The position numbers were made by a program, and so were the translations under genes. A stretch of DNA of 31,809 nucleotides from a virus. This document shows positions 1,934 to 26,920 of this stretch, in pieces; the first letter of the stretch is position 1; each line of letters opens with the position of its first letter. The notes beneath the pieces are model-generated. The model was not told where the DNA came from. It made no database searches and worked only from the letters and a program-made list of their open reading frames with translations. The DNA lies in the IMG/VR virus record IMGVR_UViG_3300028676_000020, positions 1-31,809 of that record, one strand, 5' to 3'.

Positions 1934-2908
1934 ATGGGAAAAGGACAACCTTGGTTAATAGAAGATGAAGAATTTTTAAGAGAAAATTATATAGATTTAT
2001 CTAAAGAAGAATTAATAGAAAGATTTAATACAAGAACTTGGAAGGGAATAAAACATAAAGCTAATGACATGGGAATAAAGAAACGAAATAACTATGAAGA
2101 TATTCCATTAGATGAATTATATAAAATAGAAAATGGAATTAAATATAAAAAGTGCAAATGTTGTAGACGTTATTTACCTTTTGAAATGATATATTTCCCA
2201 AAAGACGATACTTGTATTGATGGATTTAGGTATGTTTGTAAAGAATGTAAAGGAGAAAATTTTGGGTTATCTAATGCTATTGATTGGACAGATGAAGATG
2301 TAGAATTATTAAAAGAAGTTTATTCTAGTATGATAAACGAAGAGATTATCAAAGAATATTTTCCCAATAGGAAATTAAAACATTTAACAGATAAAGCTTC
2401 GAAATTAGGATTAAAGAAGGATAAAGAAACTTTCAATAGGAGTAGGGTTATGAGCCATGAGGGTAGAATTAGAGTGTCCAATGCTAGGAAAATAGAAGGT
2501 GCTTTTAAAGGAGTTAATAATCCAATGTTTAATTCACATAGAGTTGGAAAATTAAATCCAAACTGGAAAGGTGGAATAACATCTGAAAAAAGGAAAATAA
2601 TGAATGGTGATGAATATAAACAATGGAGACAAGCAGTATTTGAAAGAGATAATTATACTTGTCAATGTTGTGGAAGACAAACTCATAATAATGAAGCTCA
2701 TCATTTAGATAATTTTGCTGATTATGAAGAACAAAGATTTGATATTAATAACGGAATTACATTATGTAAGCAATGTCATAATCCAAATCAAGAAGGAAGT
2801 TTCCACAATACTTATGGAACTCTTCATAATACGAGAGAACAATATGAGGAATATGAGGAAATGACAATGAATGAATTTAATAAAAAAGATTTAAAAGTCG
2901 CTAATTAA
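1934..2908 (+). CDS. Free-standing HNH homing endonuclease
   Basis: The product has 324 residues and cuts double-stranded DNA at a recognition site. Visible parts: a SANT/Myb-like DNA-binding stretch (about 7-48), a zinc knuckle (C74, C76/C77, then C102/C105), a second SANT-like stretch (about 117-160), a NUMOD3-type segment with NNPMFN and NPNWKGG (about 195-213), and a C-terminal HNH nuclease. In the nuclease, C243/C246 and C278/C281 bind structural zinc, H256-H257 supply the catalytic histidine, N273 and H291 follow. Such genes are mobile and insert beside conserved phage genes; this one sits immediately upstream of the terminase genes and is not inside an intron. Its 3' end forms half of a terminator, so it appears well integrated. 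Alternative: an HNH enzyme assisting packaging, as some lie next to terminases, but the NUMOD3 and SANT modules favour homing. Confidence 0.85.
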   Translation: MGKGQPWLIEDEEFLRENYIDLSKEELIERFNTRTWKGIKHKANDMGIKKRNNYEDIPLDELYKIENGIKYKKCKCCRRYLPFEMIYFPKDDTCIDGFRYVCKECKGENFGLSNAIDWTDEDVELLKEVYSSMINEEIIKEYFPNRKLKHLTDKASKLGLKKDKETFNRSRVMSHEGRIRVSNARKIEGAFKGVNNPMFNSHRVGKLNPNWKGGITSEKRKIMNGDEYKQWRQAVFERDNYTCQCCGRQTHNNEAHHLDNFADYEEQRFDINNGITLCKQCHNPNQEGSFHNTYGTLHNTREQYEEYEEMTMNEFNKKDLKVAN

Positions 2909-2960: not shown

Positions 2961-3851
2961 ATGGCAAATCCAGTAGCAAATAAATTAAAATGTACTTGTT
3001 GTGGTAAAGAGAAGAAAGAAACAGACTTTTATATGAGTAAATCATTTATATATAATGCCACTTCTCATTTACCTATCTGTAAAACATGTTTAGGTAATGT
3101 ATATGATAAATATTATAGTAAATATCAAGATTATAAATTAGCACTATATTATATGTGTAGATCAGTAGGTATATGTTTTAATATGAGTTGTTATAATGGT
3201 GTTTTGCAAGAAATAGAAAATGGAAAGCAGACAACTATATGGCAAATATATATGCAAAAACTAAATAGTCTAGGTGCTAAGAATGGTGCTGGAGATGATT
3301 TTGATTCTAGTGATTCAATTGACATGGACACAGAAATTGAAAATGCTAATATAGAGCGAGGACTTAGTAAAGATACAATAATCAAATGGGGAAATGGTTA
3401 TAATGATGATGATTACATATGGTTGGAAAATACATATAACGATTGGGTTGGTAAATATAAAAGTGACACATTGTCAGAGCAAAAAACATTTAAACTTCTT
3501 GCAATTAAAGAATTTCAGATAATGAAGGCAGTTGAAAAGAATGGTAACACTGATAAATTAGAAGAAACTTATCTCAAGCTTATGTCAGCAGGTAATGTTA
3601 CTCCTAGGGATGCCAATGCTTCTATGGACGATGAAAATACTAAAGGACTAGGAGTTTGGACTAAAGATATTGAGAAATATAGACCAGCAGAATATTTTGC
3701 AGATAAAAAATTATATAAGGATTTTGATAGTTTTGTTGATTATTTGAATAGATTTGTATTTAGACCAATTAAAAATTTCTTAATGAAGACTAAAGAATAT
3801 GACGGTGAATTTTCAATAGAAGATGATTTTAAAGTTGGTGATGATAAATAA
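2961..3851 (+). CDS. terS: Terminase small subunit (probable)
   Basis: The product has 296 residues. ATG 2961 is preferred over the longer in-frame start at 2925 because AAGGAGG (2945-2951) lies directly before it. The role would be to recognise phage DNA and hand it to the large subunit for packaging into the prohead. The N-terminus carries a zinc-ribbon-like CTCC (11-14) paired with CKTC (40-43). The centre and C-terminus are helical and acidic. Assignment as small terminase rests mainly on position: its stop codon overlaps the large terminase ATG by one base (TAATG at 3849-3853), a coupling typical of this gene pair. The zinc element is unusual for a small terminase, so another packaging-associated DNA-binding role is possible. 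Confidence 0.7.
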   Translation: MANPVANKLKCTCCGKEKKETDFYMSKSFIYNATSHLPICKTCLGNVYDKYYSKYQDYKLALYYMCRSVGICFNMSCYNGVLQEIENGKQTTIWQIYMQKLNSLGAKNGAGDDFDSSDSIDMDTEIENANIERGLSKDTIIKWGNGYNDDDYIWLENTYNDWVGKYKSDTLSEQKTFKLLAIKEFQIMKAVEKNGNTDKLEETYLKLMSAGNVTPRDANASMDDENTKGLGVWTKDIEKYRPAEYFADKKLYKDFDSFVDYLNRFVFRPIKNFLMKTKEYDGEFSIEDDFKVGDDK

Positions 3852-4369
3852 TGGCAAATAACTTTAAAACATCTAGACAAAATAATGCTAAAAAAATAAG
3901 TATAAATGAAAAACCAAGACAACAAGGAAAAAAAGAAGAAAAAAGTTTTGATTATACTGAAAGATTGATTGACTGGATTACATTTTATAGAAGGAACATC
4001 CATAGAGCGGTTCAACATTACCTACAACTTGACATGCATTTATACCAATCTATACTGTTGTATTTTATGAATTTGTGTCCATTAGTTGTTATAGTAGCAT
4101 GTAGAGCAACATCAAAATCATTTGTTATAGCAGTTTTTGCATGTATAAAAGCGATACTTTATCCAAATTCATTAATCGTGATAGCCTCAGCGACAAAAAA
4201 GCAAGCTTCTTTAATTGTTACTGAAAAAATAGTTAAAGAATTAATGCCTAACTCTCCTAATCTACGGAGAGAAATAAAAAATATTAAAACTAGTGGAAAT
4301 GAAACCGAGGTCATGTTCGTGAACGGATCTTCAATTGTAGTTGTTCCAGCTACAGATAATGCTAGAGGT
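3851..4369 (+). CDS. terL: Terminase large subunit, exon 1 (ATPase N-part)
   Basis: These are the first 173 residues of the ATP-driven DNA-packaging motor. The Walker A-type ATP-binding loop is seen as CRATSKSF at about residues 84-91, a variant in which the usual Gly before Lys is Ser. The frame then ends ...ATDNARG and runs into an in-frame TAG at 4370-4372. The conserved family pattern continues with a Tyr-Arg and the Walker B strand, which are found 293 bases downstream in the same relative reading frame after removal of the intervening sequence. The break is therefore an intron, not a degraded gene. Spliced protein: 597 residues, normal for the family. Translation is coupled to the upstream gene through the overlapping TAATG. 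Confidence 0.9.
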
Positions 4370-4662
4370 TAGTAATATAGCCGTCTTAATTCAACACCAT
4401 AGAAGAATTAAGATTATTAGGGGGTAAAATCGGTGAAAGCTAAGTTTATATATGCTAATACCGAGGTAAGTTATTATACTTATAATAATACCGTAGAGCG
4501 TAGAAGGTGAATAAATATAATCCTTCCATGAGTATCCTCAATCTTTATGGTTGCAATAAGCAGATTAAAATGTACGCCAATCTGGGTAGTAAAGACCTAC
4601 CGATGAAAATGAGGGAAACCTCCAGAGTCTAAGATAAAAAACTTAGAGTTAATAACAAATTG
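4370..4662 (+). ncRNA. Group I-like self-splicing intron in terL, no internal ORF
   Basis: These 293 bases separate the two terL exons. Boundaries are fixed by protein continuity and group I rules: the upstream exon ends in U (GGT, 4367-4369), the intron ends in G (4662), and the downstream exon starts TAT AGA GCT. Visible helices: P2-like TCTTAATTC 4384-4392 with GAATTAAGA 4405-4413; a P4-P5-like CGGT...ACCG hairpin from about 4430 to 4463; a P6-like GGTA...TACC hairpin after it; CAGATT/AATCTG near 4561-4585; a GGTAG/CTACC hairpin near 4587-4603; GAGG-GAAA-CCTC near 4611-4623, a GNRA tetraloop; and TCTAAG/CTTAGA just before the 3' end. I could not assign P3 and P7 with confidence. It contains no endonuclease gene, though three free-standing nucleases lie elsewhere in the window. 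Confidence 0.82.
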
Positions 4663-5937
4663 TATAGAGCTACAGTTATGATATATGAAGAATTTCGTAT
4701 GATTAAAAAAGATATTATAGACTTTGTATTATCTCCATTCTTAATCATACGTCAAGTACCATATTTAAATAATCCAGAATATGAACATCTAAAAGAAGAA
4801 CCTACTGAAATATATATAAGTTCTGCATATTTTGCACAACATTGGATGTCTAAGATGATAAAATTATCAGTCGTTGACATGTTTAAAAAATCAGAAGCTA
4901 TATTTATGGGATTTGATTATGCTATAACATTAAAACATAATATTCGTACAAGAAAACAATTAATAAAAGAAAAGAAAAAATTAGGAACAGTTGCATTTGC
5001 AATGGAATATGAAAACCAAATGGTCGGTCAAGGAGAAGATGCTTTTTATACTTTTGATTTAATGAATAATGCACAAACTATGAAAAAAGCTTTCTATCCT
5101 AGAACTGCGCAAGATGTATTAGAAAAGAAAAAGAATCCACATGAGATACCTAAGCAAAATGGTGAAAAAAGAATAGTTTCTGTAGATATAGCTATGGTTA
5201 ATAATGATAAAAATGATAATACCGTTATAACTTGCATTAGAGCTTTACCTAGTGGAGATATCTATGAAAGACAAATACCATATATTGAAGCTTTCAAAGG
5301 AGATAATACAACAATACAAGCAACTAGAATTAAAGAAATATTTTATGATTTTGATGCAGATATATTAGTATTAGATACTCAAAATGCAGGTTTATCAATA
5401 GCTGATGAATTAGGTAAGATAACTTATTCTGAGGAAAGAGATAAAGAATATCCTCCATTTAAATGTTTCAATGATGATGAAGTTGCTAAAAGAATAAAAA
5501 ATAAAGATGCATTGCCTGTATTATTTAGTTATAAAGGTCAATCAAAAATAAATGAACAAATGCATTATGCTATGAAAGATGCATTAGATAGGAAAAAGTT
5601 AAAGTTATTAATAAATTCAGTTCAAGCAAAAGATTATTTAGACACCAAACCATTTTATAACAAAAAAGATGTAGGTTTAGATCAACAGGTGTGGTATGAA
5701 CTAGTTTATGTTCAAACAGATTTATTAATAAATGAAATGGTTGGATTGAATCAAACTATTAGTAAAGGAAGTCTAGCATTGGAAGAACCGACTGCATCAG
5801 CAACCAAAGATAGATATATTTCATTAGCAATGGGAAATTATTTAATAAAACAATGGGAATTAGATTTACAAGATAAAGATGATGAGGATGATTGGTCAGA
5901 TGCACCATCATTCGTAACATCATATTCAGTTCAATAA
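4663..5937 (+). CDS. terL: Terminase large subunit, exon 2 (Walker B and nuclease)
   Basis: The remaining 424 residues of the spliced enzyme. The exon opens directly with the ATPase Walker B strand (TVMIYEEF, spliced residues about 177-184), so the intron sits at one of the most conserved points of the gene. The C-terminal half is the RNase H-fold nuclease that cuts concatemeric DNA: the first metal-binding Asp is in VSVDIA (about spliced residue 348), and a second acidic strand is LVLDTQNAG some 75 residues later. Unspliced RNA could at most start at a TTG (4660) with no good ribosome binding site, giving an ATPase-less fragment; I regard that as an artefact of the intron. The portal gene follows after a 50-base gap. 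Confidence 0.9.
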   Translation, partial: YRATVMIYEEFRMIKKDIIDFVLSPFLIIRQVPYLNNPEYEHLKEEPTEIYISSAYFAQHWMSKMIKLSVVDMFKKSEAIFMGFDYAITLKHNIRTRKQLIKEKKKLGTVAFAMEYENQMVGQGEDAFYTFDLMNNAQTMKKAFYPRTAQDVLEKKKNPHEIPKQNGEKRIVSVDIAMVNNDKNDNTVITCIRALPSGDIYERQIPYIEAFKGDNTTIQATRIKEIFYDFDADILVLDTQNAGLSIADELGKITYSEERDKEYPPFKCFNDDEVAKRIKNKDALPVLFSYKGQSKINEQMHYAMKDALDRKKLKLLINSVQAKDYLDTKPFYNKKDVGLDQQVWYELVYVQTDLLINEMVGLNQTISKGSLALEEPTASATKDRYISLAMGNYLIKQWELDLQDKDDEDDWSDAPSFVTSYSVQ

Positions 5938-9625: not shown

Positions 9626-11110
9626 ATGCAAGAAAATAAAAGTAAAACAAGAAAAGTATTCATAGAGGAATTACCAAGGTTTACAGAAGGAAGGTATAAA
9701 AGTAAGATTAACTGGTTGGGATGTATGGGTTGTAAAATCTATTTCATATATGATAATATTGAAGGTTATATTGAAATTATTGGGTATGACATTGAAAATA
9801 GTAAATTAACAATTAAATACTTGGAAAATATTACAAAAATTACTACAACTAATTTTGCTAAATGTCAACTAGGACAAGTATTAGGAAAAATAACTAGAGA
9901 TTTTAAAGTAAAGATTGGTACTAGATTTCAAGATGATAAAAGAGATATTACTATCATTGATAGAAAAGTAGACAAAGATAAATATGAAACTGAATGGAAA
10001 TACTACAAATACAGATGTAATAAGTGTAGCTTTGATTGTAGAGAACATTGGAGCATAAAAGATAAAGAATATAAAGAAGAATTATGGATTGAAGAAAATA
10101 TGTTATTATCAAGAAAGCAAGGTTGTTCATCTTGTTCTGGTCATATAGTAGTAGAAGGAATTAATGATATTCCAACAACTGCACCAGAATTAATTCAATA
10201 TTTCTCAAATGGATATGAAGACTCAAAAAAGTATACTAAATCTAGTAAACAAAAAATTAATCCGGTCTGCCCTAATTGTGGGAAAATCAAGGAAAAATCA
10301 ATGTCGATATGTACAATTTATAAACAAGGTATATCATGCTCTTGTTCTGATGGATTCAAATATCCAAATAAATTTGCATTAAGTGTCCTTGAACAATTAG
10401 GATTAGATTTTGAAACTGAATTTACTCCTGAATGGATTAAACCAAGAAGGTATGATTTTTATGTGTCGTCTATTAATAAAATAATAGAAATGGACGGAGC
10501 ATTAGGACACGGGAATAAGAAGGATTTAGAAGGAAGAAATTCCACAGAAACGAAAGAAATTGATGACTATAAAGACAAACTTGCACAAGAACATGGAATT
10601 GAAGTTATTAGAATTGATTGTGATTATGATAATAATGACAGATTTCAATATATTAAAAATAATATTCTAAAATCTAATTTATCAAAGTTATTTGATTTAT
10701 CTAAAATCAATTGGGAAAAAGCAGAAGAATTTGCTTTATCTAATTTAGTAAAAGTTGCCTGTGATTATAAAAATAATAATTCTGAATTAACTACTTTAGA
10801 CATTGCTAATCTAATGCATTTGCATAGAGCAACAATTATCAGATACCTTAAACAAGGCACAGAAGTATGTTGGTGTAATTATGACGCTAAAAACGAAATT
10901 AGAAAAGCCGTTGGGAATAATGGGAAAATGGGTGGAAATTCAGTTAAAGTATTCAAAGATAATTTTTTATTAGGGGTATTTCAGTCTGTTTCGGAATTAT
11001 CAAAACAGTCAATAAAAATATTTGGAACAACATTAATTAGACAAAATATATCAGAGGTTTGTAAGGGTATAAGAAAAGAATATAAAGGTTTTACTTTCGA
11101 ATATGCATAA
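9626..11110 (+). CDS. Free-standing homing endonuclease (Vsr/EDxHD-like) with NUMOD-type C-terminus
   Basis: The product has 494 residues. Cysteine pairs (CNKCSFDC, CSSC, CPNC, CSCS, about residues 130-250) suggest zinc-binding DNA-contact modules. The nuclease core follows: KPRRYDFYV then IIEMDGALGH (about 270-295), the Asp...Glu-x-Asp-Gly...His arrangement of the very-short-patch-repair/EDxHD fold, and later GIEVIRIDCDYD. The C-terminus contains a helix-turn-helix (TLDIANLMHLHRATIIRYL) and NUMOD1-like repeats (VKVFKDNFLLGVFQSVSELS). Such genes are mobile and cut DNA lacking them. It interrupts the usual scaffold-decoration-capsid order, has its own strong ribosome binding site, and is followed by a strong terminator at 11126-11162. 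Confidence 0.75.
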   Translation: MQENKSKTRKVFIEELPRFTEGRYKSKINWLGCMGCKIYFIYDNIEGYIEIIGYDIENSKLTIKYLENITKITTTNFAKCQLGQVLGKITRDFKVKIGTRFQDDKRDITIIDRKVDKDKYETEWKYYKYRCNKCSFDCREHWSIKDKEYKEELWIEENMLLSRKQGCSSCSGHIVVEGINDIPTTAPELIQYFSNGYEDSKKYTKSSKQKINPVCPNCGKIKEKSMSICTIYKQGISCSCSDGFKYPNKFALSVLEQLGLDFETEFTPEWIKPRRYDFYVSSINKIIEMDGALGHGNKKDLEGRNSTETKEIDDYKDKLAQEHGIEVIRIDCDYDNNDRFQYIKNNILKSNLSKLFDLSKINWEKAEEFALSNLVKVACDYKNNNSELTTLDIANLMHLHRATIIRYLKQGTEVCWCNYDAKNEIRKAVGNNGKMGGNSVKVFKDNFLLGVFQSVSELSKQSIKIFGTTLIRQNISEVCKGIRKEYKGFTFEYA

Positions 11111-12757: not shown

Positions 12758-13354
12758 ATGATAAATAAAAAAGAAGAATTTGAAGTATTGAATTATTATG
12801 ATTATCCTAGGTATTTACCTAGTATTGAAGGTTTAGGGTATAAGATTAACGGTCAAGTAGATGGAGATGCTGGTTTTGAATTTATAACATTTAATGATTT
12901 AAGAACAGTAAATCAAAAATCAGAAGCATTTAGAAATGGTACTTTAGAATTTACTGAAGATTACAAAGATGAACTATACAAGGAATTAAGAATAGATATA
13001 AATAATAACAATTATTTCACTAGAAGAATGATTGAAGATATTATATTAGATCCAAATGATGAAAAAATTACAAAAATAGTAAATATAACAAGTAAAGATA
13101 CAATGGATAATTTTAGAAGAATATTAGTCAAACTTACTAATGATAATGAATATGACATTAGTAATAGAGTTAGAGAATATATAGATGCTAGAGAGTATGA
13201 ACTACATAATAAAATTACAAAAAGTGCTTTACCAATACCAAAAAGCAAAGTTTACAAACCAGTAGTTGAAGAAACAATTGAAACAGCAGTAGTTCCAGAA
13301 AAAGAAGAAGTTAAAGAAACTAAAGCGAAAGCTAAAAAGGCTATAGCTGAGTAA
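12758..13354 (+). CDS. Hypothetical head-region protein
   Basis: The product has 198 residues. The N-terminal half is mixed (YYDYPRYLPSIEGLGYKING), the middle helical and charged, and the last 45 residues are a low-complexity Glu/Lys/Ala/Val tail (VVPEKEEVKETKAKAKKAIAE). It lies in the virion operon between capsid and connector genes, so a head or neck role is likely. I do not recognise the family. A terminator follows at 13353-13381. Confidence 0.55.
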   Translation: MINKKEEFEVLNYYDYPRYLPSIEGLGYKINGQVDGDAGFEFITFNDLRTVNQKSEAFRNGTLEFTEDYKDELYKELRIDINNNNYFTRRMIEDIILDPNDEKITKIVNITSKDTMDNFRRILVKLTNDNEYDISNRVREYIDAREYELHNKITKSALPIPKSKVYKPVVEETIETAVVPEKEEVKETKAKAKKAIAE

Positions 13355-16793: not shown

Positions 16794-17894
16794 ATGGCAA
16801 TAGCAAATATTAATGAGATGTTTGGTATATTAAACGCATCAGATATTAGAATTTTTAACAAATCGACTGGTGCATTACTTTTAAAATTTCCACAAGGAAA
16901 CTCAGTAGTTTTAGACATTAAAGCTGATACAAAAACAGCAACAGCACAAGGAATAGATGTAATAACATGGGGGCTTCCAAAATCAGGAACATTAAAATTT
17001 ACAGCAGAAACAATATCATTCCCACAATTAGCAGAAACTTTAGGAAGTAACGGTATGAAACTTAATTCAAGTGCCCAAGCATTTGATACAACTGAAACTT
17101 TTACAGTTACTACTGATGGAACAATTACTATTAATTTAAAGAAAGCACCATTTGCTTCTAGTGTTACTAATTTTCATAGTTTGGCAAGAGAAGGCAGTTT
17201 GAATAAAACATTGACTGCAATAGTAGATGCCTCAGATGCTAAGAAGTTTACAATAACAGATTCTAGTTTAGCAGTGGGAGACATAGTAGAAGTTAATTAT
17301 ATGGCTACAATACCAACAAATGGTGTTTATACATTTAAAGTTGCTGGAAGTGGTTCAACAACACCTTCAAGAAGATTAGTTGCAAGAGTATTAGTTACAA
17401 ATTATTATGATAATTCTATGGATTTAATGACTCTTGATATTCCTAATGTAAAATTTGAAAACTCGTTAAGTTTAACTTTTGATGCAAGTAATCCATCAAA
17501 ATTTGAAGTAACTATAAAGATAATGGGGGATGCTAGATTAAAAGATGACGATGGAAATCCACTTTTCTTATCTTTATCTGCACTTAATGGTTCAGCTTCT
17601 GCAATTTCAGATTTAGCAGGAACATCGTCTGTTGCTGGAAAAGTAGCATTAACATTTACTGCACCAACAGGAGCAACAACAGTTGATTTACAATATAAAC
17701 TTTCAAGTGGTTCAACTTGGGCTTCAGTAGCTACTAGTGGTACAAGTGGAATTTATATTAGTGGTGCATTAACTAGTGCATCAACAGCAACAACTGTTAA
17801 TGGATTAACAACAACATCAGCTTATGACTTTAGATTAGTTGTAACTGACGGAGATTATGAAGGAACATCTAACGTTATTAGTGTGACACCCTAA
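16794..17894 (+). CDS. Major tail tube protein with C-terminal FN3-like domain
   Basis: The product has 366 residues and polymerises as hexameric rings around the tape measure to form the tail tube. The first ~250 residues are strand-rich, with Gly/Asp turns. From about residue 272, sequence with LTFTAPTGATTVDLQYK, a Ser/Gly-rich middle and the closing strand TSAYDFRLVVTDGDY reads as a fibronectin type III or Ig-like domain, often displayed on tail surfaces. Strong ribosome binding site AAAGGAGG (16778-16785). The gene ends ...GTG ACA CCC TAA, the +1 slippery configuration known from SPP1 and PSA tail tube genes, with an open +1 frame following (separate entry). The next genes are preceded by a strong terminator at 17993-18030. 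Confidence 0.8.
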   Translation: MAIANINEMFGILNASDIRIFNKSTGALLLKFPQGNSVVLDIKADTKTATAQGIDVITWGLPKSGTLKFTAETISFPQLAETLGSNGMKLNSSAQAFDTTETFTVTTDGTITINLKKAPFASSVTNFHSLAREGSLNKTLTAIVDASDAKKFTITDSSLAVGDIVEVNYMATIPTNGVYTFKVAGSGSTTPSRRLVARVLVTNYYDNSMDLMTLDIPNVKFENSLSLTFDASNPSKFEVTIKIMGDARLKDDDGNPLFLSLSALNGSASAISDLAGTSSVAGKVALTFTAPTGATTVDLQYKLSSGSTWASVATSGTSGIYISGALTSASTATTVNGLTTTSAYDFRLVVTDGDYEGTSNVISVTP

Positions 17895-17958
17895 TAATCC
17901 TATTTCATCAGGAATAGTGGGGCAAGGAACTGTAGGAAATGCAGTAGTACAACCTTAA
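17889..17958 (+). other. Candidate programmed +1 frameshift site and tail-tube extension
   Basis: The last sense codon is CCC (17889-17891) followed by TAA. If the prolyl-tRNA slips forward one base (CCC to CCT), reading continues AAT AAT CCT ATT TCA... to a TAA at 17956-17958 and adds 21 residues (NNPISSGIVGQGTVGNAVVQP). CCC.UAA +1 slippage is the established mechanism for the long form of the SPP1 tail tube protein, and CCC.UGA for Listeria phage PSA. Here the added tail is short, rich in Gly and Val. Confidence 0.6.
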
Positions 17959-17992
17959 CCTATGATAAATTATAAAATTGTATATTAATCAT

Positions 17993-18030
17993 AAAGACAT
18001 TAGATAAATTAGATATCTAGTGTCTTTTTA
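17993..18030 (+). terminator. Strong intrinsic terminator after the tail tube gene
   Basis: AAAGACATTAGATA (17993-18006) pairs with TATCTAGTGTCTTT (18014-18027), a 14-bp stem with one GU pair and a 7-base loop, then T's. It would limit transcription from the tail tube gene into the following genes. Confidence 0.82.
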
Positions 18031-18076
18031 TTAGTATATAAGTATAAAAATCAAATATGAGAAGGAAGTGAATTAT

Positions 18077-18493
18077 ATGAACAATCCAATGATATCAGAA
18101 GAAACTTTAAATATAATTAATCCAAAAACACACAAATCAGTTAAAGAAATGTTAATAGAATTAGATATTTTTAATGATGGAGAAGAAATTACATTTGCTG
18201 AAGTAATGATCAGGATAGAACCTAGCTATCAGTTATTATTAAAACAATCAAAAGGTATTTATAGATGGTTTAGATTTAATTCACTTATTCGAGGGAATGC
18301 AGATAAAGAAATATTATTTCAGAAATCAGATGGAAGTACTGAAACTAGATACGCAATTATTAAAGAAGATAAAGATAATTATTATATAGCTATCAATTCC
18401 AATAATATTACTTGTGATAAGAGTGTTGGAATTGCAAAAGATATGTACAGTAAATTTGCTAGAATTACTGAGGAAAAGTTCGGAAATAAATAA
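18077..18493 (+). CDS. Hypothetical protein, tail-region
   Basis: The product has 138 residues. ATG 18077 is chosen over GTG 18068, which lies inside the Shine-Dalgarno GGAAGTG. Small mixed protein with an acidic N-terminal part and a C-terminal strand-helix unit (YYIAINSNNITCDKSVG). It follows the tail tube gene, where tail-assembly chaperones are often found, but no frameshift site or chaperone motif is seen. Not recognised. Confidence 0.5.
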   Translation: MNNPMISEETLNIINPKTHKSVKEMLIELDIFNDGEEITFAEVMIRIEPSYQLLLKQSKGIYRWFRFNSLIRGNADKEILFQKSDGSTETRYAIIKEDKDNYYIAINSNNITCDKSVGIAKDMYSKFARITEEKFGNK

Positions 18494-25396: not shown

Positions 25397-26920
25397 ATGA
25401 GTAAAGATGGAAAGTTTCAAAATTTAATAGGTGAAAAATTTAATAAATTAACAGTTATAGAATTAGATGAAGGTAGAACAAGTAAAAATAAAAGTGGTAT
25501 GAAGTATTGGTGGTGTAGATGTGATTGTGGGAAATTAACAAATAAATCTATATCTACTAGTGATTTAAAATCTGATAATACTAAATCATGTGGTTTATGT
25601 ATAACTTTTGAAGATTGGTGTATTGAAAATAATAGACAAGATATATTAGATAGATGGGATTATGATTTAAATAGTTGTAAACCTAGTGAAACTAGTTATA
25701 AAAGTAGTAAAAAATATTATTTTAAATGCTTAGAAAATAAAAAACATAAAGATGAATCAAGAAGAGTTGATGTAATAACAGTCAACAAAGATTATCAAAT
25801 TATATGTACTGAATGTAATAGTTTTGCACAATGGGGAATTGATAATTTAGGTGAAAATTTCTTGGATAAGTATTGGGATTATAAAAAGAATAAGGTTGTT
25901 AATCCTTGGAAGATTAGTTGTAAAAATAATAAACATATATGGATTAAATGTATAGATGTTTATTATCATGAATCATATGAATGCAGACCAGTTACTTTTG
26001 TTAATGGTAATCGATGTCCTTATTGTAGTCATAAAACAGGATTAACGCATCCTAAAGATTCTTTTGCGCAATGGTGCATAGATAATATTGATAAAGATTT
26101 TATGACTAAATATTGGAGTGATGCAAATATAATTAATCCATTTGAATTAAATAAGGGTAGCAATGTTAAAATATTTATAAAATGTCGAGAAAAAGATTAT
26201 CATGATGATTATGAAACTAGTTGTGATAATTTTAGTAAAGGGAAAAGATGTCCTTGTTGTATTAATTATCATGGGAGAGTACATCCTAAAGATTCGTTAG
26301 GTCAATATATAACAGATAATTATGGACAAAAGTTTTTAGATAAAATATGGTCTGATAAAAATGACAAATATCCTTTTGAATACACTCCTAATAGTGGGAA
26401 TGTCATCTGGTGGAAATGTTCAGAGAATAAACATGATAATTATCAAAGAGAAATAAATGGGGCTAATAGTATTGAATTTAGGTGTCCTAAGTGTGTGCAA
26501 GAAAGAAATGAATCATTCCTTCAGGAAAAAGTAAGATTATATTTAAATACATTAAATTATACCATATTACATGAAAATAAATGTACTAACGTTCCTATTA
26601 ATCCTAAAACAAATTATCAACTACCATTTGATAATGAGATTAAAGAATTAAAATTAATTATAGAAGTAAATGGGCAACAACATTACAAAATTAATGGGTA
26701 TAACCATCAAGTTTCAACAAAAAATAATACAACTCCAGAACAAGAACTTCACTATCAACAGTTGAAAGATAGGTATAAAAGAATAAAGGCAATTCAACAA
26801 AGTTATTTTTATTTAGAAATACCATACTGGACAAATAATGAGAATGAAGAGTGGAAGCAATTAATTAATGACAAATTAAAAGAAATTCAAGAAAATGCAA
26901 AATTAAATCAAGCTATATAA
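25397..26920 (+). CDS. Zinc-ribbon-repeat nuclease (Vsr/EDxHD-like homing endonuclease)
   Basis: The product has 507 residues. After an N-terminal Cys-rich unit (WWCRCDCG ... SCGLC) there are four tandem ~65-70 residue repeats, each with a SFAQWCIDN-like start (TFEDWCIENN, SFAQWGIDNL, SFAQWCIDNI, SLGQYITDNY), a D/KYW-type core and closing Cys-x-x-Cys pairs, of the putative zinc-ribbon DUF4379 type. The C-terminal ~135 residues hold a nuclease core: KLIIEVNGQQHY (Glu then Asn-Gly...His) and RYKRIKAIQQSYFYLEIPYW. This layout suits a sequence-specific DNA cutter with a modular zinc recognition arm. It sits between control genes and tail genes and is not within an intron. Whether it acts in homing or in interference with other phages cannot be told from sequence. 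Confidence 0.75.
   Translation: MSKDGKFQNLIGEKFNKLTVIELDEGRTSKNKSGMKYWWCRCDCGKLTNKSISTSDLKSDNTKSCGLCITFEDWCIENNRQDILDRWDYDLNSCKPSETSYKSSKKYYFKCLENKKHKDESRRVDVITVNKDYQIICTECNSFAQWGIDNLGENFLDKYWDYKKNKVVNPWKISCKNNKHIWIKCIDVYYHESYECRPVTFVNGNRCPYCSHKTGLTHPKDSFAQWCIDNIDKDFMTKYWSDANIINPFELNKGSNVKIFIKCREKDYHDDYETSCDNFSKGKRCPCCINYHGRVHPKDSLGQYITDNYGQKFLDKIWSDKNDKYPFEYTPNSGNVIWWKCSENKHDNYQREINGANSIEFRCPKCVQERNESFLQEKVRLYLNTLNYTILHENKCTNVPINPKTNYQLPFDNEIKELKLIIEVNGQQHYKINGYNHQVSTKNNTTPEQELHYQQLKDRYKRIKAIQQSYFYLEIPYWTNNENEEWKQLINDKLKEIQENAKLNQAI

What the first reader, a model, noticed from the sequence alone, without database searches (positions are those of the whole stretch)
17886..17958. SPP1-like +1 frameshift at CCC.TAA in the tail tube gene
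Seen: the gene ends GTG ACA CCC TAA and the +1 frame stays open for 21 codons with a Gly/Val-rich sequence, then stops. Known: SPP1 makes a long tail tube protein by +1 slippage at CCC.UAA, and Listeria phage PSA uses CCC.UGA in structural genes. Here the FN3-like domain is before the slip site and the extension is short, a different division from SPP1.
Basis: partly seen in the sequence, partly recalled or inferred. Interest (0 to 1): 0.75.

Follow-up and report, generated by a model that had tools for sequence, protein, structure and literature searches.

The report
Tail tube gene with +1 frameshift
A phage gene for the tube of the viral tail ends at a slippery CCC-stop where some ribosomes should skip one base and add a short, conserved 18-21 amino acid tail, a trick already known from a few other phages but not previously described, as far as I could find, in this tail family.

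Summary
Gene 16794-17894 ends GTG ACA CCC TAA TAA, and the +1 frame stays open for 21 codons (NNPISSGIVGQGTVGNAVVQP) before TAA at 17956-17958. The gene is an SPbeta-type tail tube gene carrying a constitutive C-terminal FN3 domain. CCC is 4 of 152 Pro codons in the window. The extension has a coding signature only in the +1 frame.

The decisive evidence is comparative. A relative with about 47% tube identity, seen as identical sequence in five IMG/VR contigs, ends CCC TAG TAA. Its +1 frame encodes SNPTNIVGQSILGEMIVG, alignable to the window's peptide in that frame only. Three other lineages end GCA or CTA TAA TAA and lack both slip site and extension. Two relatives (L050/L054) share 93% of the tube part but only 58% of the FN3 part, so FN3, slip site and extension behave as an exchangeable cassette.

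Best explanation: a used +1 'shifty stop' that puts a short C-terminal tag on a minority of tail tube subunits. The closest known case is Listeria phage PSA (CCC.TGA, 24 aa), then SPP1 (CCC.UAA, 87 aa FN3) and lactococcal 936 TpeX (CCC.UAG). It is a new member of a known kind. Frameshifting itself, its efficiency and the tag's function are not shown.

The parts
16794..17894 (+). Tail tube protein gene, short (frame-0) product, 366 aa
   Evidence: ORF; phrog_2729 E=1.4e-26; phrog_2729 also holds SPbeta YomU, which matches the solved SPR tail tube protein 8k98, E=1.7e-54
16794..17558 (+). SPbeta-type tube domain (about residues 1-255)
   Evidence: phrog_2729 match to residues 8-252; homologues in C. 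difficile phages cover 10-246
17589..17891 (+). Constitutive FN3-like domain (about residues 266-366), before the slip site
   Evidence: Pfam fn3 sub-threshold on the fragment, E=0.0022; model residues 265-366 match FN3 domains, VIA Z up to 10.9, rmsd 2.4 over 91
17889..17894 (+). Shift site CCC.TAA (+1 slip of peptidyl-tRNA-Pro from CCC to CCT, inferred)
   Evidence: sequence; CCC.TAG in relative L054 at 5105-5110
17892..17897 (+). Tandem frame-0 stops TAA TAA
   Evidence: sequence; tandem stops also in L034, L035, L050 (TAA TAA) and L054 (TAG TAA)
17893..17958 (+). +1-frame extension, 21 codons NNPISSGIVGQGTVGNAVVQP plus TAA
   Evidence: coding scores; homologous +1 peptide in L054
17900..17917 (+). 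Possible stimulatory 7-bp hairpin, 8 nt 3' of CCC
   Evidence: a 7-bp hairpin lies 7 nt 3' of CCC in L054 with different sequence, none in lineages without the site; suggestive only (window alone 0.095 of shuffles)
17993..18027 (+). Terminator-like hairpin with T run behind the extension
   Evidence: 14-bp stem, region -22.5 kcal/mol; 17961-18067 aligns with the intergenic DNA behind the tube genes of L034 and L035

Best explanation
The tail tube gene carries a used +1 'shifty stop'. Most ribosomes terminate at CCC.TAA and make the 366-aa tube protein (tube domain plus FN3). A minority, paused with tRNA-Pro on the rare CCC codon in the P site and a stop codon in the A site, slip one base forward from CCC to CCU and read 21 more codons, giving a 387-aa form. 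Both forms then co-assemble in the tail tube, so some FN3 domains on the tube surface bear an 18-21 residue Gly/Val-rich C-terminal tag. Shown: site, open coding-like frame, homologous site and peptide in a divergent relative, absence of both together in other lineages, tail tube and FN3 identity. Inferred: that slippage occurs, its mechanism (taken from SPP1, PSA and 936), the ratio, incorporation into virions, and a role at the tail surface such as weak host-surface contact.
For: Exact CCC.TAA with a rare Pro codon. +1 frame open for 21 codons with coding signature in that frame only. Independent lineage L051-L054/L056, tube 47-48% identical, ends CCC TAG TAA; its +1 peptide SNPTNIVGQSILGEMIVG scores 31 against the window's peptide (BLOSUM62), versus 2 and -2 in the other frames; 29 of 20,000 shuffles and 0 of 1,151 real protein windows reach it. 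Its own +1 frame is coding-like too: +4.8 bits versus -11.5 and -9.7, GC by codon position 9/7/1 of 18. CCC and extension co-occur: present together in 2 lineages, absent together in L034, L050, L035 and the distant L029. A hairpin sits 7-8 nt past CCC in both carriers and is absent in L034, L050 and L035. Same site type in tail tube genes of SPP1 (PMC6316719), PSA/A118/A500 (PMC5009743) and 936 phages (PMC4759559).
Against: No expression or proteomic data. Only two carrier lineages known, and the window lineage rests on one contig at this spot: the 99.99% identical contig L010 stops at window base 13095. Three related lineages do without it, so it is not essential. The stop is tandem (TAA TAA), no Shine-Dalgarno-like element was seen just upstream, and downstream structure for the whole extension is not beyond shuffles (z -1.1). 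The peptide similarity is short.
Confidence: 0.85

Rival explanations
1. Recent indel or assembly error: the gene was in frame (CCT AAT AAT CCT...) with a 387-aa product, and one extra C made CCC TAA TAA.
For: One contig only at this spot; an extra C in a CC run would give exactly this; the extension is coding-like.
Against: A relative at 47% tube identity has the same CCC-stop in the same phase with a homologous +1 peptide, identical in five contigs; the same single-base event would have to occur twice at the same codon. The 366-aa end also lines up within two residues with the ends of relatives that have no extension.
Confidence: 0.05
2. The extension is a relic or low-level by-product: CCC.TAR leaks a little +1 product without a selected role.
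For: Absent in three related lineages; SPP1 virions with only the short form are viable (PMC8718954).
Against: The frame, a rare codon (2.6% of Pro codons in the window) and peptide motif NP..IVGQ...G are kept across 47% divergence; no stops in either lineage.
Confidence: 0.08
3. The stretch is not part of the tube protein: an independently started small ORF or a structured 3' RNA element.
For: A GTG occurs inside the window stretch; some hairpins are predicted.
Against: No start codon is conserved at a shared position (window ATA GTG GGG versus L054 ATA GTA GGT); fold z only -1.1; the peptide, not the other frames, is conserved.
Confidence: 0.02

Closest known systems
Listeria phage PSA Tsh-L (also A118, A500): +1 shift at CCC.UGA in the major tail protein gene
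   Same: Rare CCC just before the stop, preceded by ACA in both; short +1 extension (24 aa in PSA, 21 here) with no recognised domain; terminator hairpin right behind; site lost (CCA TAA) in the more distant homologues examined
   Different: Different tail tube protein family; no FN3 before the site in PSA; UGA instead of UAA/UAG; extension unrelated and acidic
Bacillus phage SPP1 gp17.1*: +1 shift at CCC.UAA in the tail tube gene
   Same: Same hexamer CCC.UAA, same kind of gene, +1 direction (PMC6316719)
   Different: SPP1 adds 87 aa that are the FN3 domain; here the FN3 is in the constitutive part and only 21 aa are added. Different tube protein family
Lactococcal 936 phages MTP-TpeX: +1 shift at CCC.UAG
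   Same: Shifty stop at the end of the tail tube gene, CCC kept with another stop codon as in L054 (PMC4759559, PMC6105707)
   Different: TpeX is a large carbohydrate-binding extension (about 22.6 kDa) that forms visible spirals; here the tag is 18-21 aa
SPbeta/SPR tail tube protein (YomU family, phrog_2729)
   Same: Homologous tube domain
   Different: YomU (265 aa) and the C. difficile phage homologue (272 aa) have no FN3; YomU ends GAA TAA, the C. difficile gene AAA TAG, no CCC-stop

Membership tests
+1 'shifty stop' extension of siphophage tail tube proteins (SPP1, PSA, 936) | Gene encodes the tail tube protein | tested here: met
   phrog_2729 shared with YomU, which matches the solved SPR tail tube protein
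+1 'shifty stop' extension of siphophage tail tube proteins (SPP1, PSA, 936) | Rare CCC codon directly before the in-frame stop | tested here: met
   CCC.TAA at 17889-17894; CCC 4 of 152 Pro codons
+1 'shifty stop' extension of siphophage tail tube proteins (SPP1, PSA, 936) | +1 frame open behind the site and coding in nature | tested here: met
   21 codons; +9.9 bits versus -13 in other frames
+1 'shifty stop' extension of siphophage tail tube proteins (SPP1, PSA, 936) | Site and frame kept together in a diverged relative | tested here: met
   L054: CCC.TAG plus homologous 18-aa +1 peptide; absent together in L034, L050, L035
+1 'shifty stop' extension of siphophage tail tube proteins (SPP1, PSA, 936) | Two tube protein forms in virions | not testable with these tools
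   needs virion proteomics or Western blot
SPP1 gp17.1* type | Extension is an FN3 domain | tested here: not met
   Extension is 21 aa; the FN3 lies before the site
936 TpeX type | Extension is a large carbohydrate-binding domain | tested here: not met
   Extension is 21 aa; no match in phages by tblastn at E<=10
SPP1/PSA tail tube protein families by sequence | Homologous tube domain | tested here: inconclusive
   P0001 hits only phrog_2729; the SPP1 record was not in the collection; no direct profile comparison with PSA made

The most novel reading that the evidence does not exclude
FN3 domain, shifty stop and short tag form a self-contained decoration cassette that phages swap at the tube/FN3 boundary, carrying its own recoding signal, so that tube proteins gain or lose an optional C-terminal tag in one recombination step; the tag itself would be a new short surface-acting peptide family (NP..IVGQ...G).
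Probability: 0.35. Interest if true: 0.5.

Novelty: new member of a known kind. Interest (0 to 1): 0.42.

Why it matters
It adds a further phage lineage, in the large SPbeta-like siphophage tail family, to the small set of tail tube genes with +1 recoding, and shows with sequence alone that frame and peptide are conserved. The payload is unusually small and sits on top of an FN3 domain that every subunit already carries, so the recoding cannot serve to dilute FN3 as in SPP1; it must act through a 20-residue tag or be near neutral. The L050/L054 pair suggests that a recoding signal can travel with its module. Annotation pipelines will miss such short extensions.

Tried and rejected
Partial duplication of the gene end as the source of the extension: suggested by eye and a MAFFT alignment, rejected because extension versus tube DNA does not beat shuffles (140/300). 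Structured RNA as the reason for the GC-rich stretch: whole-stretch fold z -1.1 and no Rfam match at gathering threshold. Near-identical copies of the window phage at the site: exact upstream 24-mer and degenerate peptide pattern GQGTVGNA gave none in viral contigs; the 99.99% contig ends before the gene. Extension alone against phages: none. Two genome-contig scans gave no relatives. Phage-borne tRNAs that might read CCC: none in the window, in four loci or in five relative records; the host and its tRNA-Pro set were not identified. First AlphaFold model (with extension) was poor, pLDDT 48, extension about 33; the second, without extension, reached 69, and fold searches listed mainly FN3 matches for residues 265-366, leaving the tube part untested by structure. 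A tree of six tube proteins does not resolve whether the two carriers are sisters.

Full report
Observation. The sequence is as described. The ORF 16794-17894 (366 aa) ends GTG ACA CCC TAA, followed directly by a second TAA. Skipping one base after CCC gives 21 sense codons, NNPISSGIVGQGTVGNAVVQP, and a stop at 17956-17958. The window is an AT-rich (27% GC) 31.8 kb virus record.

Is it more than chance? CCC makes up 4 of 152 proline codons. At that rate about 0.013 of 25 genes would end in CCC, and an intergenic model leaves the +1 frame open for 21 codons in 11% of cases. The extension is 40% GC against 17% in the intergenic DNA behind it, with GC by codon position 13, 10 and 2 of 21. Scored with the codon usage of the window's structural genes against intergenic triplets, the +1 frame gives +9.9 bits and the other two frames about -13. 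None of 431 intergenic and 1 of 885 off-frame open windows reach that. Leaving the tube gene out of the training set still gives +8.4. All other post-stop runs of 10 to 99 codons in the window score between -18 and -2 on this measure.

What gene is it? P0001 matches phrog_2729 over residues 8-252 (E 1.4e-26). SPbeta YomU matches the same family (1.8e-70) and is homologous to the solved SPR phage tail tube protein (8k98 and others, 1.7e-54; PMC11087589 describes the SPR tube and DSR2). Residues 266-366 are an FN3-like domain: Pfam fn3 below its cut-off, but the predicted model matches FN3 domains at Z up to 10.9 over about 90 residues.

Relatives. Terminase and capsid searches, then profile searches with the tube protein, gave five lineages with the FN3-bearing tube gene, the window included. 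L034 (54% identical) ends GCA TAA TAA, L050 (48%) GCA TAA TAA, L035 (46-50%) CTA TAA TAA; each has only 3-6 open +1 codons. A distant homologue, L029, ends GAA TAA TAA. The remaining lineage, L051-L054 and L056 (47-48%), identical in five IMG/VR contigs, ends GTA ACT ATA CCC TAG TAA. Its +1 frame reads SNPTNIVGQSILGEMIVG and then stops.

The two +1 peptides align: window NNPISSGIVGQGTVGNAVVQP, L054 SNP--TNIVGQSILGEMIVG-. The BLOSUM62 score is 31 in the +1 frame and 2 and -2 in the other frames of the same DNA. 29 of 20,000 shuffles and none of 1,151 windows from real proteins of that phage reach it. The L054 extension is coding-like in its +1 frame only. Slip codon and extension are thus present together in two lineages and absent together in the others. 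That makes a recent indel or assembly error an unlikely source, since it would have to repeat at the same codon.

History. DNA behind the extension (17961-18067) aligns with the intergenic DNA behind the relatives' tube genes, starting near their stops (0 of 300 shuffles for L035, 5 of 300 for L034). The extension is therefore an extra stretch of about 66 bases at the gene end. It does not resemble the tube gene itself. L050 and L054 share about 90% of DNA through the tube part and drop to about 60% at the start of FN3 (protein 93% versus 58%), which points to exchange of FN3, slip site and extension as a block. The tree does not tell loss from transfer.

Signals around the site. Both carriers can form a 7-bp hairpin 7-8 nt after CCC with different stem sequences; L034, L050 and L035 form none there. 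Shuffles reach the energy in 9.5% (window) and 0.45% (L054) of cases, so this is suggestive and was noticed after the fact. No tRNA genes were found in the window or in relative records.

Mechanism. By analogy with SPP1, where ribosomes pause at rare CCC and shift to CCU within CCCUAA to give a 3:1 ratio of short to long tube protein (PMC6316719), the likely event is a +1 slip of the Pro-tRNA during slow termination. Frequency, incorporation into tails and function of the tag are inferences. Because all subunits already carry FN3, the shift adds only the tag, probably displayed at the far end of FN3 on the outside of the tube.

Comparison with known cases. The SPP1 extension is 87 aa and is itself FN3 (PMC6316719). 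The 936 TpeX extension uses CCC.UAG and is a large carbohydrate-binding domain (PMC4759559, PMC6105707). Listeria phages PSA, A118 and A500 use CCC_UGA in tsh (PMC5009743). In the PSA record the long form ends 73 bases after the short one, 24 extra aa, at ACA CCC TGA. Its relative LP-030-2 keeps CCC TGA with a 33-aa extension, while the Geobacillus and Psychrobacillus homologues end ACA CCA TAA. Patchy presence is therefore normal for this kind of site. The case here works like these and meets their sequence-level criteria; it is not an SPP1-type FN3 addition nor a TpeX-type domain addition.

Verdict. A real, very probably used +1 shifty stop: new member of a known kind, with a small tag on an FN3-bearing SPbeta-type tube and hints of cassette exchange. 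Two literature searches found no earlier report for this tail family, but the library is open-access only.

Noticed in passing
window 4373-4659 (between ORFs 3851-4372 and 4660-5937): The terminase large subunit gene is interrupted by about 280 nt with a weak group I intron match (RF00028, 29.3 bits, E 1.2e-5, below gathering); relatives L012/L013 have one uninterrupted 599-codon frame.
   Followed up: partly
L050 4739-4799 and L054 same region: Sharp drop from about 90% to 60% DNA identity at the tube/FN3 boundary between two otherwise close tube genes: decoration domain swapped.
   Followed up: partly
window 18068-18493: 141-aa ORF between the tube gene and the next tail gene, absent at that place in L023, L035 and L054, with no match in PHROGs, phages or viral contigs.
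   Followed up: partly
window 17973-18044; L023 1840-1906: The terminator region behind the tube gene is 83% identical to a stretch behind a different gene of a relative: mobile or repeated terminator element.
   Followed up: no
window 1934-2908, 9626-11110, 25397-26920: Three endonuclease-like genes (HNH or homing type by eye), with related copies at other places in L023.
   Followed up: no
L045 1166-1279 (Listeria phage LP-030-2): The probable +1 extension of its tail protein (CCC TGA, 33 aa) overlaps what is annotated as a separate hypothetical protein.
   Followed up: no
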